64,000 nucleotides of DNA from Armatimonadota bacterium (lineage in GTDB: Bacteria; Armatimonadota; HRBIN16): assembly GCA_026003175.1 (NCBI GenBank), contig BPGT01000003.1, positions 124,001 through 188,000 on the forward strand, read 5' to 3'. Positions within the stretch are counted from its first letter, which is position 1; each line of letters opens with the position of its first letter. Made by a program: the position numbers and the translations under genes. Below the pieces are notes generated by a model, which was not told the origin of the DNA, did no database searches, and was given only the letters and a program-made list of their open reading frames with translations. Positions 49,450-53,562 of this stretch are shown one piece after another.

Positions 49450-49479
49450 TTGACATATTTACCCTTGCTGGTTTATACT
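49450..49479 (+). promoter_or_regulatory. tRNA-Leu promoter
   Basis: TTGACA (49450-49455), 18-base spacer, TATACT (49474-49479), 17 bases before the tRNA. The first T of the -35 is also the last base of the target-site duplication. Confidence 0.75.
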
Positions 49480-49496
49480 CTATCTGGTGCTGTCCA

Positions 49497-49581
49497 GCCG
49501 GAGTGGCGGAATGGTAGACGCGCCCGCCTCAAAAGCGGGTGCCGAACAGGCGTGGGGGTTCGAGTCCCCCCTCCGGCACCA
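49497..49581 (+). tRNA. tRNA-Leu (anticodon CAA)
   Basis: Acceptor arms GCCGGAG / CTCCGGC pair perfectly, with discriminator A and encoded CCA. Anticodon stem CCCGC/GCGGG holds the loop CTCAAAA, giving CAA. The long variable arm (TGCCGAACAGGCG) and T-arm GGGGG-TTCGAGT-CCCCC are as expected for a class II leucine tRNA. Confidence 0.95.
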
Positions 49582-49617
49582 TCGGTTAACCATCCGATTC
49601 CGGGAATAATACTCGTG

Positions 49618-49646
49618 TTGCCCCGCCACGACGGGGCAATTTTCTT
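49618..49646 (+). terminator. Rho-independent terminator of the tRNA
   Basis: TTGCCCCG, loop CCACGA, CGGGGCAA, followed by TTTTCTT. The ribosome site of ygfZ begins within the end of this structure. Confidence 0.8.
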
Positions 49647-49659
49647 GAGGAGCCGTCCA

Positions 49660-50718
49660 GTGGAAAGACCAGCCTCCTCGCCCTTGTCCAAATGGTTCGG
49701 CGGTAAGTCACCTGCTTCGTATGGCGACCTCAGTGCAGAGTACGCTTCCCTGCGAGCAGGCGCGGTTGTGCTCGACATGGGTACGCTGGGTAAGCTGCTC
49801 GTGACCGGCGACGACCGGATTGCCTACCTGCAAGGACAACTCAGTCAGGACATTTTGCCCCTGCAGCAAGCAGGAAACGGTGCGTTCTCGTGTTTGTTGA
49901 AACCTACCGGACAGATGCTCTCGGACATGGTGTTGTTTTCTACAGACGACGCCATCTTCGTCCTGACCCCACCCCATACGCGCCGGATGGTGCACGAACG
50001 GCTAACACAGTTTGTGATTGTGGAGGACGTGGAGATAACAGACGTCACCGAGGAGCGCACGCTACTGCACGTTGCCGGGCCGCTCTCTCCCAGCATACTA
50101 AAACTGTTTGGGCTGGAAGAAGCACTTCCCCTCTGGCACAGCAGGGTATGTACGTGGGGTGGAGCGTCGCTGGTTTTAGGACGCACTGACCGCTGCGGCG
50201 AGCAGGGGTACGACCTTTTGGCTCCTGCAGGAAGTACGTCTGTGCTCTGGCAGGCGTTGCTGGATGCAGGTGCACGTCCTATAGGCTATGAGGCGTTCAA
50301 CGTGCGTCGGGTGGAGGCGGGAATTCCGTTGTTCGGAATAGATATGAATGAGAATACTATCCCTCTGGAAGCGGGGCTGGGCGAGCGCGCCATCAGCTTC
50401 ACCAAGGGTTGCTACACCGGACAGGAGGTCATCCATCGCATTTTCTCACGTGGACACACGAACCGTTCGCTGGTGGGGCTGCATCTGTTCGGGGATGTTT
50501 TGCCACCGTACCGTGCTCCTATCAGCACAGGCGACCGTCGGGATGCGGGCTGGGTTACCAGTGCGGTGCGTTCTCTCGCGCTGGATGGGGTCATCGCGCT
50601 GGGTACTGTGCGCAACGAGTACACCATGCCCGGTACACGGGTTGTCATCCAGCATGAACCGTCTCCCATAGAAGCGCAGGTCGTCCCGTTGCCTTTTGTG
50701 GAGCCGAGCCGTGCTTGA
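49660..50718 (+). CDS. ygfZ: Folate-binding Fe-S/tRNA-modification protein YgfZ
   Basis: 352 residues from GTG 49660 (TTGAGGAG seven bases upstream); the open frame reaches back through the tRNA, which cannot be coding. GcvT-like aminomethyltransferase fold: AGAVVLDMGTLGKLLVTGDDRIAYLQGQLSQDI near 35-65, and the YgfZ hallmark TKGCYTGQEVIHRI near 247-260 with the conserved cysteine. YgfZ uses tetrahydrofolate in assembly or repair of some Fe-S enzymes. The next gene overlaps its end by 8 bases. Confidence 0.92.
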   Translation: MERPASSPLSKWFGGKSPASYGDLSAEYASLRAGAVVLDMGTLGKLLVTGDDRIAYLQGQLSQDILPLQQAGNGAFSCLLKPTGQMLSDMVLFSTDDAIFVLTPPHTRRMVHERLTQFVIVEDVEITDVTEERTLLHVAGPLSPSILKLFGLEEALPLWHSRVCTWGGASLVLGRTDRCGEQGYDLLAPAGSTSVLWQALLDAGARPIGYEAFNVRRVEAGIPLFGIDMNENTIPLEAGLGERAISFTKGCYTGQEVIHRIFSRGHTNRSLVGLHLFGDVLPPYRAPISTGDRRDAGWVTSAVRSLALDGVIALGTVRNEYTMPGTRVVIQHEPSPIEAQVVPLPFVEPSRA

Positions 50719-51616
50719 CGCCGCGTTGTTGTTCTTGATCAATGTGCTGTGGGCAGCAGCATATCCGGTGGCGAAGTTTGCCATCAATGGCGGGGTTCCG
50801 TCGGTGACGCTGGCTTGGGCACGGTGGGCGGTTGCCATGTTGGTATTGCCCCTCTTCGCCCGTTTTGTGCTGCGGGTACCGCTGGGGTTGCCTCGTTCCG
50901 ACCTGCTTCGTGCGCTGGTGTTGGGCGCGCTGGCTTTAGGGCTGGTGCATATTCTGGTGTTCGTCGGGCTGAAGTACACCACCGCCGTCGACGCCACTTT
51001 ACTGCTAGCTGGAGAACCGCTGGTGATGGCAGTGATGTCTGTTCTGCTGCTGCGCGAAGGGATGACGAGGCAGGCGGTGTGGGGAATGGTGCTGGGGTTT
51101 GCAGGCGCGTACCTGCTTATCAATCGTGGGCTGATACCCCCGCTAAACAACAGCGGCACGCTGATAGGCAACCTGCTGGTGGCGGCGTCGGTGCTAGTGG
51201 AAGGCACAGGTACGGTGCTTTCGCGAGGGTTAACCCGCCGTTATAGCGGCATAGTGGTGCTGTTCTGGGAGAGTGTAGGGGCAACGCTGGCTCTGGCGAT
51301 ACCGGCGTATCTGTCCTGGGCGGGCTCGCCCGTTGCGCCAGATCCAGCCGCGCTGGGCGCAGTGCTCTACCTGGGCATGGTTAACAGCGCGTTCTGCTAC
51401 GCAGTATGGTTTGTGCTGATGGAGAGACATCATGTGGGCAATATGGGCGTGTTTATCTTTGTGCAGCCGGTGTTTGGTGCGCTGATGGGCGTGCTGTGGC
51501 TGAAGGAGCCTTTCGGCTTCTATACTGCTATCGGCTCGGCAATGGTGCTGGGCGGAGTGTGGTTAACCACACGTATCACCGCTGACGAGCGTGTAGAGGG
51601 TCACGCTCTGCCGTGA
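50711..51616 (+). CDS. EamA/DMT-family transporter
   Basis: 301 residues from GTG 50711 with GGAG (50700-50703) upstream. Ten membrane helices in two EamA repeats: FLINVLWAAAYPVAKFAING at the start, ATLLLAGEPLVMAVMSVLLLREGMTRQAV near 95, and GNMGVFIFVQPVFGALMGVLWLKEPFG near 240. DMT exporters move amino acids, drugs or other metabolites; the substrate cannot be read from sequence. Translationally linked to ygfZ through the overlap. Confidence 0.88.
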   Translation: MLDAALLFLINVLWAAAYPVAKFAINGGVPSVTLAWARWAVAMLVLPLFARFVLRVPLGLPRSDLLRALVLGALALGLVHILVFVGLKYTTAVDATLLLAGEPLVMAVMSVLLLREGMTRQAVWGMVLGFAGAYLLINRGLIPPLNNSGTLIGNLLVAASVLVEGTGTVLSRGLTRRYSGIVVLFWESVGATLALAIPAYLSWAGSPVAPDPAALGAVLYLGMVNSAFCYAVWFVLMERHHVGNMGVFIFVQPVFGALMGVLWLKEPFGFYTAIGSAMVLGGVWLTTRITADERVEGHALP

Positions 51617-51640
51617 CATGCCACTCTAGCAAAACAACCG

Positions 51641-51669
51641 TTGCATTCGAGGTGGGGCGGTGCTATACT
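51641..51669 (+). promoter_or_regulatory. Promoter of the 51733 gene
   Basis: TTGCAT (51641-51646), 17-base spacer, TATACT (51664-51669), 63 bases before ATG 51733. Confidence 0.55.
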
Positions 51670-51732
51670 GAATCAGGTGGAACTTTTGACAGATTCGGTG
51701 CGTCTGCATAGTCGGAAGGATGGTGAAGCACG

Positions 51733-52476
51733 ATGAATCGTCAAGTGGCTTTCATCGGTGCAGGAGTGCTGGTGGTTTTGTTAGCGGGCATCTTGCTGGG
51801 GCGCCACCTCTTCCCGATTACCCATCGAGAGGCGAGCGCGCCGCCCGGGGGTAACGTGCTGCTGGCGCCCGCGCCACAGCTTCCTGATGCAAACCTGCTT
51901 CGGGCACAGGGCGAAGCGCAACCGCCTCCGCAGGAACCTCAGAAGCGTGCGCCCGACGACATCATCGACTACCTGAATCACCTGCAGAAGGTGGAAACAC
52001 AGCGTCAGGCGATGCAGCGTGACCTGACCCCGGCGTTTAACGCTTTTGTCAATGCCGTGGCGATGCGGGCGACCATCGACGAGCAGGAAATGCAGCAACG
52101 CATGAGCGCGGTGCGACAGGCTCCTCAAGACTATTCGCAGAAGTGGGCACAGCTCAGCCAGTTCTTCGAGTCGAAACAGCCGCCGCCTGCCTGTCAGCCC
52201 TTGCATGAAGCCTACCGCAAGATGCTGGCGTCCACTATCGCCTATATGACAAAGGTGTACCTCGCTCTGCAGCAGGCACAAACCGACCCCAACGCTGCAC
52301 TGCAAGCGCTGTCGCAGATGCAGGGCACGGCTTCTACCGACGTGGACACACAGATTCTGCAGGCTAACTACGAACTCCAGCAGATACTGGATAAATATGA
52401 TCTGCGTCGATACTTCCCCGGTTTCGTGATTAGTGGAGACGGGGGATTGAACCTGCGCAGCATCTTCGGGGGTTAA
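51733..52476 (+). CDS. Membrane-anchored extracytoplasmic protein, unknown
   Basis: 247 residues. One N-terminal helix (VAFIGAGVLVVLLAGILLGRHLF), a proline-rich spacer (30-75), then a mainly helical domain (DDIIDYLNHLQKVETQRQAMQRD, YRKMLASTIAYMTKVYLALQQAQ, ILQANYELQQILDKYD). GGAAGGATGG lies upstream. It is 9 bases before the mutY-like gene and probably cotranscribed, though a functional link is not evident. No family recognised. Confidence 0.75.
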   Translation: MNRQVAFIGAGVLVVLLAGILLGRHLFPITHREASAPPGGNVLLAPAPQLPDANLLRAQGEAQPPPQEPQKRAPDDIIDYLNHLQKVETQRQAMQRDLTPAFNAFVNAVAMRATIDEQEMQQRMSAVRQAPQDYSQKWAQLSQFFESKQPPPACQPLHEAYRKMLASTIAYMTKVYLALQQAQTDPNAALQALSQMQGTASTDVDTQILQANYELQQILDKYDLRRYFPGFVISGDGGLNLRSIFGG

Positions 52477-52485
52477 CCGGAGTAC

Positions 52486-53562
52486 ATGTGGACACCAGAA
52501 CAGCTTCACGCCATCCCGCAGCTTCTGCTGGAGTGGTATAAGGTACATGCGCGCCCGGTGCCCTGGCAAGAGAACCCGGATCCCTATCACATGCTGGTGG
52601 CTGCAACCATGCTACAGCAGACGCAGGTACAAACGGTGTTGCCGTACCTCGAACGGTTCCTACAGCGATTCCCCACCGTACGCGACCTTGCCGCCGCCGA
52701 CGAGGAGGAGGTGCTGCTTTACTGGTCAGGCTTAGGTTACTACAATCGCGCCCGCAGCCTGCACCGCGCAGCACAGCAGATATGCAGGCGACATAACGGC
52801 TCCGTACCCTGTAGAGCAGATGCCTTGCGACAGCTGCCCGGTATCGGGGAATATACTGCCGGTGCGGTAGTCAGTATCGCCTGTGGCAAGCCCGAGCCTG
52901 CACTGGACGCCAACGGTTACCGCATCCTCGCCCGCCTGCTCGCCTTCGAGGAGGATGTTACGCTCAGCTCCAGCCGCAGATTGCTCGGGGAAGCATGCCG
53001 ACAAATACTACCTGAACACGCTCCCGGCGAGTTCAATCAGGCGTTGATGGACCTTGGCGCGCTGATATGCACCGCCCGCCAGCCGCGCTGCCTGATATGC
53101 CCGCTCGCCGGTGAGTGTCGCGCATTCCAGCAGGGACGCCAGACGAGCCTGCCGATGTTTCCTCCGCACCGCGCCGGCGAAAAGGTAGTGGATGTGTGTG
53201 CGGTCATAGAGCGCGACGGACGGTGGCTGATGGTCAGGCACACGGACGGGCGTTTGTGGCGGGGGCTGTGGGGGTTCCCCCGTGTGCGAGTGGAGGAGGG
53301 TGAAACGCTGGAACAAGCTGCCCACCGCGCAGCAATGATGGTGGGAGTGCAGGTGGATGGCTGTGAGGTGCTTACGACCATTCGGCACGCCGTCATGCAC
53401 TACTCGGTGACGTTGCACGTGGTGCGCTGTCGCCTGTGCGAGCAACATCCTGAAGAAGGTAATACATTGCGCTGGGTATCCCCGCCCGAGGCACAAAAAC
53501 TGCCTGTTCCCTCTCCGGTGCGCCGTGTTGTTAATAAGCTCATACAGGAGCAGGGGAAGTAA
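52486..53562 (+). CDS. mutY: MutY-like adenine DNA glycosylase lacking the catalytic glutamate
   Basis: 358 residues. HhH-GPD fold with LLYWSGLGYYNRARSLHRAA, the hairpin LPGIGEYTAG and the catalytic-aspartate region ALDANGYRILARL. The Fe-S ligands CTARQPRCLICPLAGEC have C-x6-C-x2-C-x5-C spacing. A NUDIX-like 8-oxoG-sensing domain follows (WRGLWGFPRVRVEEGETLEQA). In MutY the first catalytic residue is the Glu of SEVMLQQTQ; here the segment is VAATMLQQTQ, so it is Ala. The FSH loop of the C-terminal domain reads VMH. MutY removes A opposite 8-oxoG. This version may have altered or no glycosylase activity. Confidence 0.85.
   Translation: MWTPEQLHAIPQLLLEWYKVHARPVPWQENPDPYHMLVAATMLQQTQVQTVLPYLERFLQRFPTVRDLAAADEEEVLLYWSGLGYYNRARSLHRAAQQICRRHNGSVPCRADALRQLPGIGEYTAGAVVSIACGKPEPALDANGYRILARLLAFEEDVTLSSSRRLLGEACRQILPEHAPGEFNQALMDLGALICTARQPRCLICPLAGECRAFQQGRQTSLPMFPPHRAGEKVVDVCAVIERDGRWLMVRHTDGRLWRGLWGFPRVRVEEGETLEQAAHRAAMMVGVQVDGCEVLTTIRHAVMHYSVTLHVVRCRLCEQHPEEGNTLRWVSPPEAQKLPVPSPVRRVVNKLIQEQGK

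What the first reader, a model, noticed from the sequence alone, without database searches (positions are those of the whole stretch)
52486..53562. MutY-like glycosylase without the catalytic glutamate and with an altered FSH loop
The segment equivalent to SEVMLQQTQ reads AATMLQQTQ, so the residue that protonates adenine is alanine. The C-terminal loop that reads 8-oxoG (FSH) is VMH. Fe-S cysteines, aspartate and hairpin are intact, so the gene is not simply decaying. It may be a distinct glycosylase with another target or a damage-binding protein.
Basis: partly seen in the sequence, partly recalled or inferred. Interest (0 to 1): 0.52.

Follow-up and report, generated by a model that had tools for sequence, protein, structure and literature searches.

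The report
MutY repair enzyme without catalytic glutamate
A group of hot-spring bacteria has kept, under strong selection, a DNA-repair enzyme of the MutY type that has lost the one acidic residue thought to do its chemistry, so it probably holds damaged base pairs and cuts them very slowly, or cuts something else.

Summary
Window 52486-53562 encodes a 358-aa MutY-lineage protein whose catalytic Glu (Gs/Bst E43, E. coli E37) is Ala40. It is not a sequencing error or one decaying gene: all 9 genus genomes in which the gene was found have Ala, written with three synonymous codons, while 110 of 110 other MutY rows in my alignment have Glu. It arose once (one clade), the gene is syntenic, dN/dS is about 0.09-0.2, and the HhH, Asp, Tyr, Fe-S cysteines and adenine-specificity residues are kept. 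The own genome has no second canonical MutY; it has an OGG1-type protein, an Nth and a Mig-like glycosylase, and no MutM. The 'altered FSH loop' (VMH) is ordinary for this phylum and occurs with Glu intact. Published E43S/E37S mutants bind OG:A tightly and cut thousands-fold slower or not at all, so my best reading is a naturally evolved Glu-less MutY: a tight OG:A (or G:A) binder and very slow, Asp/Tyr-driven excision enzyme in thermophiles. Retargeting to another base, or a pure damage-binding role, remains open. A mutation-spectrum test was inconclusive. New variant of a known kind; function untested.

The parts
52486..53562 (+). MutY-lineage protein P0001, 358 aa, start MWTPEQ or a near variant (MWTTQQ in L005) shared by the 9 genus orthologues
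   Evidence: TIGR01084 mutY 285.3 bits against cut-off 286.5
52597..53001 (+). HhH-GPD glycosylase domain (aa 38-172 of the profile match)
   Evidence: PF00730, 67.6 bits
52567..52569 (+). Gln28 at the position of Gs/Bst Arg31 (Q in 5, H in 4 of the genus); E. coli MutY also has Gln here
52600..52608 (+). Ala39-Ala40-Thr41 replacing Ser-Glu-Val/Ile; Ala40 (52603-52605) is the position of catalytic Glu43 (Gs/Bst) / Glu37 (E. coli)
52627..52629 (+). Val48 = E. coli Val45, adenine-specificity residue, kept
   Evidence: role from PMC2714593
52834..52863 (+). helix-hairpin-helix LPGIGEYTAG with Tyr123 (Gs/Bst Tyr126) and Glu122 (Gs/Bst Pro125)
52906..52914 (+). Asp141-Ala142-Asn143 (Gs/Bst Asp144, Asn146): catalytic Asp kept in 9 of 9, Asn in 8 of 9
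53038..53040 (+). Gln185 = E. coli Gln182, adenine-contact residue, kept
   Evidence: role from PMC2714593
53068..53118 (+). four Fe-S cysteines Cys195, Cys202, Cys205, Cys211
   Evidence: PF10576
53194..53535 (+). C-terminal NUDIX-like (8-oxoG-reading type) domain
   Evidence: PF14815, 79.4 bits; model superposes on full-length MutY
53386..53400 (+). H301-A-V-M-H305, the loop aligned to H-x-FSH
51733..52476 (+). upstream ORF of unknown family ending 9 nt before mutY; syntenic in the genus

Best explanation
A true MutY orthologue that lost its general acid/base Glu once, in the ancestor of one thermophilic genus (class HRBIN16, Armatimonadota), and has been kept since. I infer that it still scans DNA with its Fe-S/HhH domain and C-terminal domain, captures the base (most likely adenine) opposite 8-oxoG or G, and behaves like the published E43S/E37S mutants: tight lesion binding and very slow excision driven by the kept Asp144-equivalent and Tyr126-equivalent, helped by high temperature. 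Shown: sequence, conservation, one-clade distribution, selection, absence of a second canonical MutY in the own genome. Inferred: binding, substrate, rate and physiological role.
For: Ala40 in 9 of 9 genus orthologues, Glu in 110 of 110 others; three synonymous Ala codons; one clade, support 100; dN/dS 0.086-0.205 over 36 pairs; glycosylase domain as constrained as in an Enterococcus clade (0.82 against 0.81 identity); only 4 otherwise conserved positions changed in the genus. Asp, Tyr, Cys4, Val45-, Gln182-, Met185- and Asp186-equivalents 9 of 9. Confident model, pLDDT 96.0, closest to full-length MutY including E43S and E43Q complexes. Passages of PMC12871665: E43S/E43Q cut OG:A at 0.0098/0.015 per min at 60 C, 5,500/3,600-fold slower than wild type; section 9: Tyr126 contacts N3 of adenine in E43S. 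PMC10993402 passage: E37S binds OG:A tightly without excision. HRBIN16 relatives come from hot springs (passages).
Against: No activity or binding data. A 5,500-fold slower enzyme may be of no use to the cell. E. coli Glu replacements (Gln, Ser) are reported inactive (PMC12871665 section 3). Arg31, offered in PMC12871665 as part of an alternative acid route, is Gln/His in the genus (though E. coli also has Gln). Asn146 is His in one of 9. The mutation-spectrum test did not separate MutY+ from MutY-null lineages.
Confidence: 0.42

Rival explanations
1. Retargeted glycosylase. Losing Glu43 opens space beside N7/C8 of the flipped purine, and Asp plus Tyr suffice for a base that needs no N7 protonation (an oxidised purine, or a pyrimidine opposite G or 8-oxoG).
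For: Ala-Ala-Thr is invariant 9 of 9, as in a specialised pocket. PMC12871665 states that other HhH glycosylases work with Asp and without this Glu (section 11, adds MAG1/MIG as exceptions); the own-genome Nth has Cys at the Glu position. Asp141 and Tyr123 are kept, which a pure binder need not do.
Against: Residues that set adenine over thymine preference (Val45-, Gln182-equivalents) are kept 9 of 9, unlike the Mig-like L002 (Ala, Phe). Two or more UDG-family matches in 8 of 10 genus genomes already cover uracil. No Lys at the Nth position.
Confidence: 0.28
2. Non-catalytic damage-binding protein that marks or shields 8-oxoG:A (or G:A) for mismatch repair or blocks OGG1-type excision there.
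For: E37S MutY binds OG:A without cutting (passage). MutS1 above cut-off in 9 of 10 genus genomes, only a contig-end fragment in G006. OGG1-type protein in the own genome. A binding-altered E. coli MutY (V45A) is dominant negative (PMC2714593 abstract). Asn146 is His in one species.
Against: The catalytic Asp and Tyr stay invariant, and the glycosylase domain is as constrained as in an active clade. Nothing in the neighbourhood suggests a partner.
Confidence: 0.2
3. Another acid, most plausibly Glu122 next to Tyr123, has taken over and the enzyme is an ordinary MutY in effect.
For: Residue 122 is Glu/Asp in 9 of 9 of the genus and in 23% of other MutYs.
Against: Acids at this position are common in MutYs that keep Glu43, so it is no specific replacement. 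Distances in the model could not be measured.
Confidence: 0.06
4. Gene drifting after loss of catalysis, not yet lost.
For: MutY is dispensable in the phylum: 17 of 61 sampled genomes have no match at 1e-20. The protein evolves faster than the genus's OGG1-type and Nth proteins (mean identity 0.74 against 0.81 and 0.89 over 15 common pairs).
Against: dN/dS 0.086-0.205, full-length ORFs in all 9 (L008 ends about five residues early), invariant Cys4/Asp/Tyr, and deep divergence within the genus (down to 65% identity) after the change.
Confidence: 0.04

Closest known systems
MutY / MUTYH, OG:A adenine DNA glycosylase (TIGR01084)
   Same: Full-length fold (Z about 40, rmsd about 2 A to Gs MutY), HhH, Cys4, Asp, Asn, Tyr, adenine-specificity residues, C-terminal NUDIX-like domain
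   Different: Catalytic Glu is Ala in 9 of 9; Ser308 position is Met; score 285.3 just under the curated cut-off 286.5
Engineered Gs MutY E43S/E43Q and E. coli E37S
   Same: No acid at position 43; rest of the active site intact (8dwd, 8dwe, 8dwf among the closest structures)
   Different: Those are laboratory mutants; this is fixed in a natural genus, with Ala, and with Ala at 42 and Thr at 44 beside it
Mig.MthI-type T/G mismatch glycosylase (1kea; L002 in the own genome)
   Same: HhH-GPD with Asp and Tyr
   Different: Mig keeps the Glu and has Ala/Leu at the Val45/Gln182 positions (PMC2714593); P0001 has Val/Gln, no Glu, and a NUDIX domain
Endonuclease III / Nth (L003)
   Same: HhH, Fe-S, no Glu at position 43 (Cys in L003)
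   Different: P0001 has Tyr where Nth has the Lys nucleophile, and carries a C-terminal domain

Membership tests
MutY adenine DNA glycosylase | Catalytic Glu (E43 Gs / E37 Ec) | tested here: not met
   Ala40; Ala in 9 of 9 genus rows, Glu in 110 of 110 others
MutY adenine DNA glycosylase | Catalytic Asp, with Asn two residues on, and Tyr126 | tested here: met
   D141, N143, Y123
MutY adenine DNA glycosylase | Four Fe-S cysteines | tested here: met
   C195, C202, C205, C211
MutY adenine DNA glycosylase | C-terminal NUDIX-like domain | tested here: met
   PF14815, 79.4 bits; fold match over aa 2-357
MutY adenine DNA glycosylase | H-x-FSH motif (Ser/Thr that reads 8-oxoG) | tested here: not met
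   H-A-V-M-H: both His kept, Ser position Met; 9 of 35 phylum MutYs with Glu also have Met
MutY adenine DNA glycosylase | Adenine-specificity residues V45 and Q182 (Ec) | tested here: met
   V48, Q185
MutY adenine DNA glycosylase | NCBIfam TIGR01084 curated cut-off 286.5 bits | tested here: not met
   285.3 bits
MutY adenine DNA glycosylase | Excises A opposite 8-oxoG | not testable with these tools
   needs an assay
Mig.MthI-type T/G glycosylase | Glu kept and Ala/Leu at the V45/Q182 positions | tested here: not met
   Ala40, Val48, Gln185
Endonuclease III | Lys nucleophile in the hairpin | tested here: not met
   Tyr123

The most novel reading that the evidence does not exclude
A natural, Glu-independent MutY-fold glycosylase whose opened pocket accepts an 8-oxo- or otherwise N7-protonated purine (or another base) opposite 8-oxoG or G, working by Asp/Tyr catalysis alone: a change of target within the MutY family set off by loss of its signature catalytic residue.
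Probability: 0.17. Interest if true: 0.8.

Novelty: new variant of a known kind. Interest (0 to 1): 0.55.

Why it matters
The Glu is called a cornerstone innovation for MutY (PMC12871665 section 11), and all 160 MutYs authenticated in the Lost City survey use it (PMC11078426 passage). A whole genus that fixed Ala there while keeping nearly everything else is a natural experiment: it tests directly whether MutY can act without its acid at high temperature, whether lesion binding alone is selected, or whether the pocket has a new target.

Tried and rejected
Sequencing error or a single decaying gene: rejected. Second canonical MutY in the own genome: none; the other HhH-GPD proteins are Mig-like, Nth and OGG1-type. 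Arg31 loss as a second catalytic lesion: I first counted it so (102 R and 6 K of 110 elsewhere), then dropped it because E. coli MutY has Gln there. VMH loop as a special feature: rejected. MutM absence as the cause: 0 of 10 genus genomes have a MutM match, but relatives without a MutM match (for example G024, G025, G029, G032) keep Glu. Mutation-spectrum test at fourfold sites: the genus pair G003-G009 had G:C<->T:A-type changes at 0.18 of the transition rate (5,570 sites), but a MutY-null pair (G230-G231) had 0.15 and canonical pairs ranged from 0.14 to 0.88, so the test cannot tell MutY status; the controls overlapped and many pairs were far diverged. 'Null' there means that only weak HhH-domain or NUDIX-domain matches (at most 87 bits) were found. 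A survey of other phyla for non-Glu MutYs was not possible. Literature searches for a natural Glu-less MutY: searches listed none that I recognised; only open-licence PMC papers are held. Distances in the model could not be measured (no coordinates given).

Rows dropped: the 110 'other' rows leave out L001 and L034-L038 (L001 is the query's own locus; the others match genus rows in score, and L034, L037, L038 also in contig length) and L002, L003, L178 (not MutY). They include partial rows, so one to three gaps occur at some positions but none at position 43. Ten genus genomes were searched; G007 (77% complete) had no match. A1 for folding used 68 rows, P0001 plus 67 of the 118 references listed. 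The tree left out 15 of 123 rows.

Full report
What is there. Window 52486-53562 (+) encodes 358 aa. It matches HhH-GPD, the Fe-S motif and a C-terminal NUDIX_4 domain in Pfam, and NCBIfam mutY at 285.3 bits, just under the cut-off of 286.5. AlphaFold2 gave a confident model (mean pLDDT 96.0, pTM 0.90) that superposes over its whole length on Geobacillus (Gs/Bst) MutY (Z 40.5, rmsd 2.0 A, 349 residues, to 9bs2; the E43S and E43Q complexes 8dwd, 8dwe, 8dwf are among the closest).

The substitution. Where Gs/Bst MutY has Ser42-Glu43-Val44 and E. coli has Ser36-Glu37-Val38, the protein has Ala39-Ala40-Thr41 (the E. coli numbers follow those printed in PMC2714593 and PMC10993402). In an alignment of 9 genus rows and 110 other MutY rows (35 from the same phylum, 75 from elsewhere), position 43 is Ala in 9 of 9 and Glu in 110 of 110. 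The 75 were found through short peptides shared with the query, so they are not an unbiased sample of MutY. A DNA pattern for A-x-M-L-Q-Q-T-Q hits 9 of 291 genomes of the phylum, all in this genus; the Glu pattern hits 150 of 291, none of them in the genus. The Ala codon is GCA, GCG or GCC in different species, so the residue, not the DNA, is what is kept.

History and selection. The 9 rows form one clade (support 100) inside NUDIX-bearing MutYs. The order upstream ORF - mutY - sigma factor is kept in all 9 genus loci examined; the four non-genus loci tested showed no match but mutY. Over 36 pairs dN/dS is 0.086-0.205; most dS values exceed 1, and the closest pair (G003-G009) gives dN 0.042, dS 0.46, ratio 0.092. 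Within the genus the glycosylase domain is more conserved than the C-terminal domain (0.82 against 0.64), just as in Enterococcus MutYs with Glu (0.81 against 0.59); the other control clades gave 0.87/0.79, 0.74/0.67 and 0.83/0.90. Only 4 positions that are at least 85% conserved elsewhere changed in the genus (28, 31, 43, 200). Position 31 is Gln in 5 and His in 4; Gln is also the E. coli residue, so it is no sign of inactivity. Position 43 alone stands out.

What is kept. Asp144-, Tyr126-, Gln48-, Thr49-, Tyr88- and all four Cys-equivalents are 9 of 9; Asn146 is 8 of 9 (His in G004, the residue that the own-genome Nth has). Of seven E. coli residues named for adenine binding (R19, E37, L40, N140, Q182, M185, D186; PMC2714593 passage), six are kept in P0001 and only E37 is lost; R19 is placed by the alignment. 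V45 is kept as well. V45A or Q182L in E. coli raised T/G affinity without T/G cutting (PMC2714593 abstract). The pocket thus still looks like an adenine pocket.

Loop. VMH at the FSH position is not special: Met at 308 occurs in 9 of 35 phylum MutYs with Glu, and L027 has VMH with Glu. His305- and His309-equivalents are 9 of 9. Met cannot make the Ser/Thr contact to 8-oxoG described in PMC11078426 (passage), so 8-oxoG reading may be weaker in all these proteins (inference).

Genome setting. In the own genome the other HhH-GPD proteins are a Mig-like one beside a cytosine-5 methyltransferase gene (L002; it keeps Glu), an Nth (L003) and an OGG1-type protein (OGG_N 95.4 bits, L147). No genus genome has a MutM match (0 of 10). 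OGG1-type homologues were recovered in 7 of 10 genus genomes. UDG-family matches: 10 of 10. MutS1 matches: 10 of 10, above the cut-off in 9, with only a contig-end fragment in G006. Adenine opposite 8-oxoG is therefore handled by this protein, by mismatch repair, or not at all (inference). Record titles identify relatives as Bacterium HR16 (HRbin16), isolates SKYG83 and SKYG40 and a Chthonomonadia MAG; equating them with G handles rests on equal scores and, for three, equal contig lengths. Passages of three papers place class HRBIN16 or its phylum in hot springs: biofilms at 58-74 C (PMC11071339, abstract start, passages), predicted growth optima 43-56 C for the Armatimonadota MAGs (PMC9671151), and activity at 60 C in mats (PMC11788075).

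How it most likely works. In PMC12871665 (abstract, sections 3, 9, 11 and 13 and passages) E43S and E43Q Gs MutY cut OG:A at 0.0098 and 0.015 per minute at 60 C, 5,500- and 3,600-fold below wild type; [quoted passage not shown] At 0.0098 per minute a half-life is about 70 minutes (my arithmetic). E. coli E37S binds OG:A tightly and does not cut (PMC10993402 passage). From this I infer a tight binder with slow, Asp/Tyr-driven excision, adenine being the likeliest base. This is a prediction, not a result. The rivals are a new target base (the cavity left by Glu43 lies by N7/C8 of the purine, PMC12871665 section 9) and a purely binding role.

Results against, and limits. A fourfold-site spectrum test was meant to ask whether 8-oxoG:A is still repaired; MutY-null and MutY-positive controls overlapped, so it says nothing. 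The protein evolves faster than the genus's OGG1-type and Nth proteins. No coordinates were available to check Glu122. Other phyla could not be surveyed without bias. Papers held are open-licence only.

Noticed in passing
L002:392-2160 (own genome C1, outside the window): A cytosine-5 DNA methyltransferase gene followed directly by a Mig-like HhH glycosylase that keeps the Glu; a close relative of the glycosylase is in G004 (L178). Fits the known pairing of m5C methylation with T:G repair (recalled).
   Followed up: partly
L147:1351-2277 (own genome C2, outside the window): An OGG1-type 8-oxoguanine glycosylase (OGG_N plus HhH-GPD) in a genus without any MutM match.
   Followed up: partly
window 49497-49581: A tRNA-Leu(CAA) gene lies inside the mechanically called start of the GCV_T-type (YgfZ-like by my reading) ORF at 49450; the real start must be downstream.
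   Followed up: yes
window 49450-53562: GCV_T-type protein, EamA transporter, ORF of unknown family and mutY keep their order in the three genus loci long enough to show all four (L036, L037, L038); YgfZ-like proteins are linked to Fe-S upkeep (recalled) and MutY carries an Fe-S cluster.
   Followed up: no
L010 (G004 mutY), residue aligned to Asn146: His replaces the Asn that is 109 of 109 (one gap) in other MutYs; Nth has His here.
   Followed up: no
L041, L052, L062, L064, L065, L067, L068, L076, L077, L079: Planctomycete-clade MutYs have Glu in place of the catalytic Asp (13 of 110 rows in all have it), with Glu43 kept.
   Followed up: no
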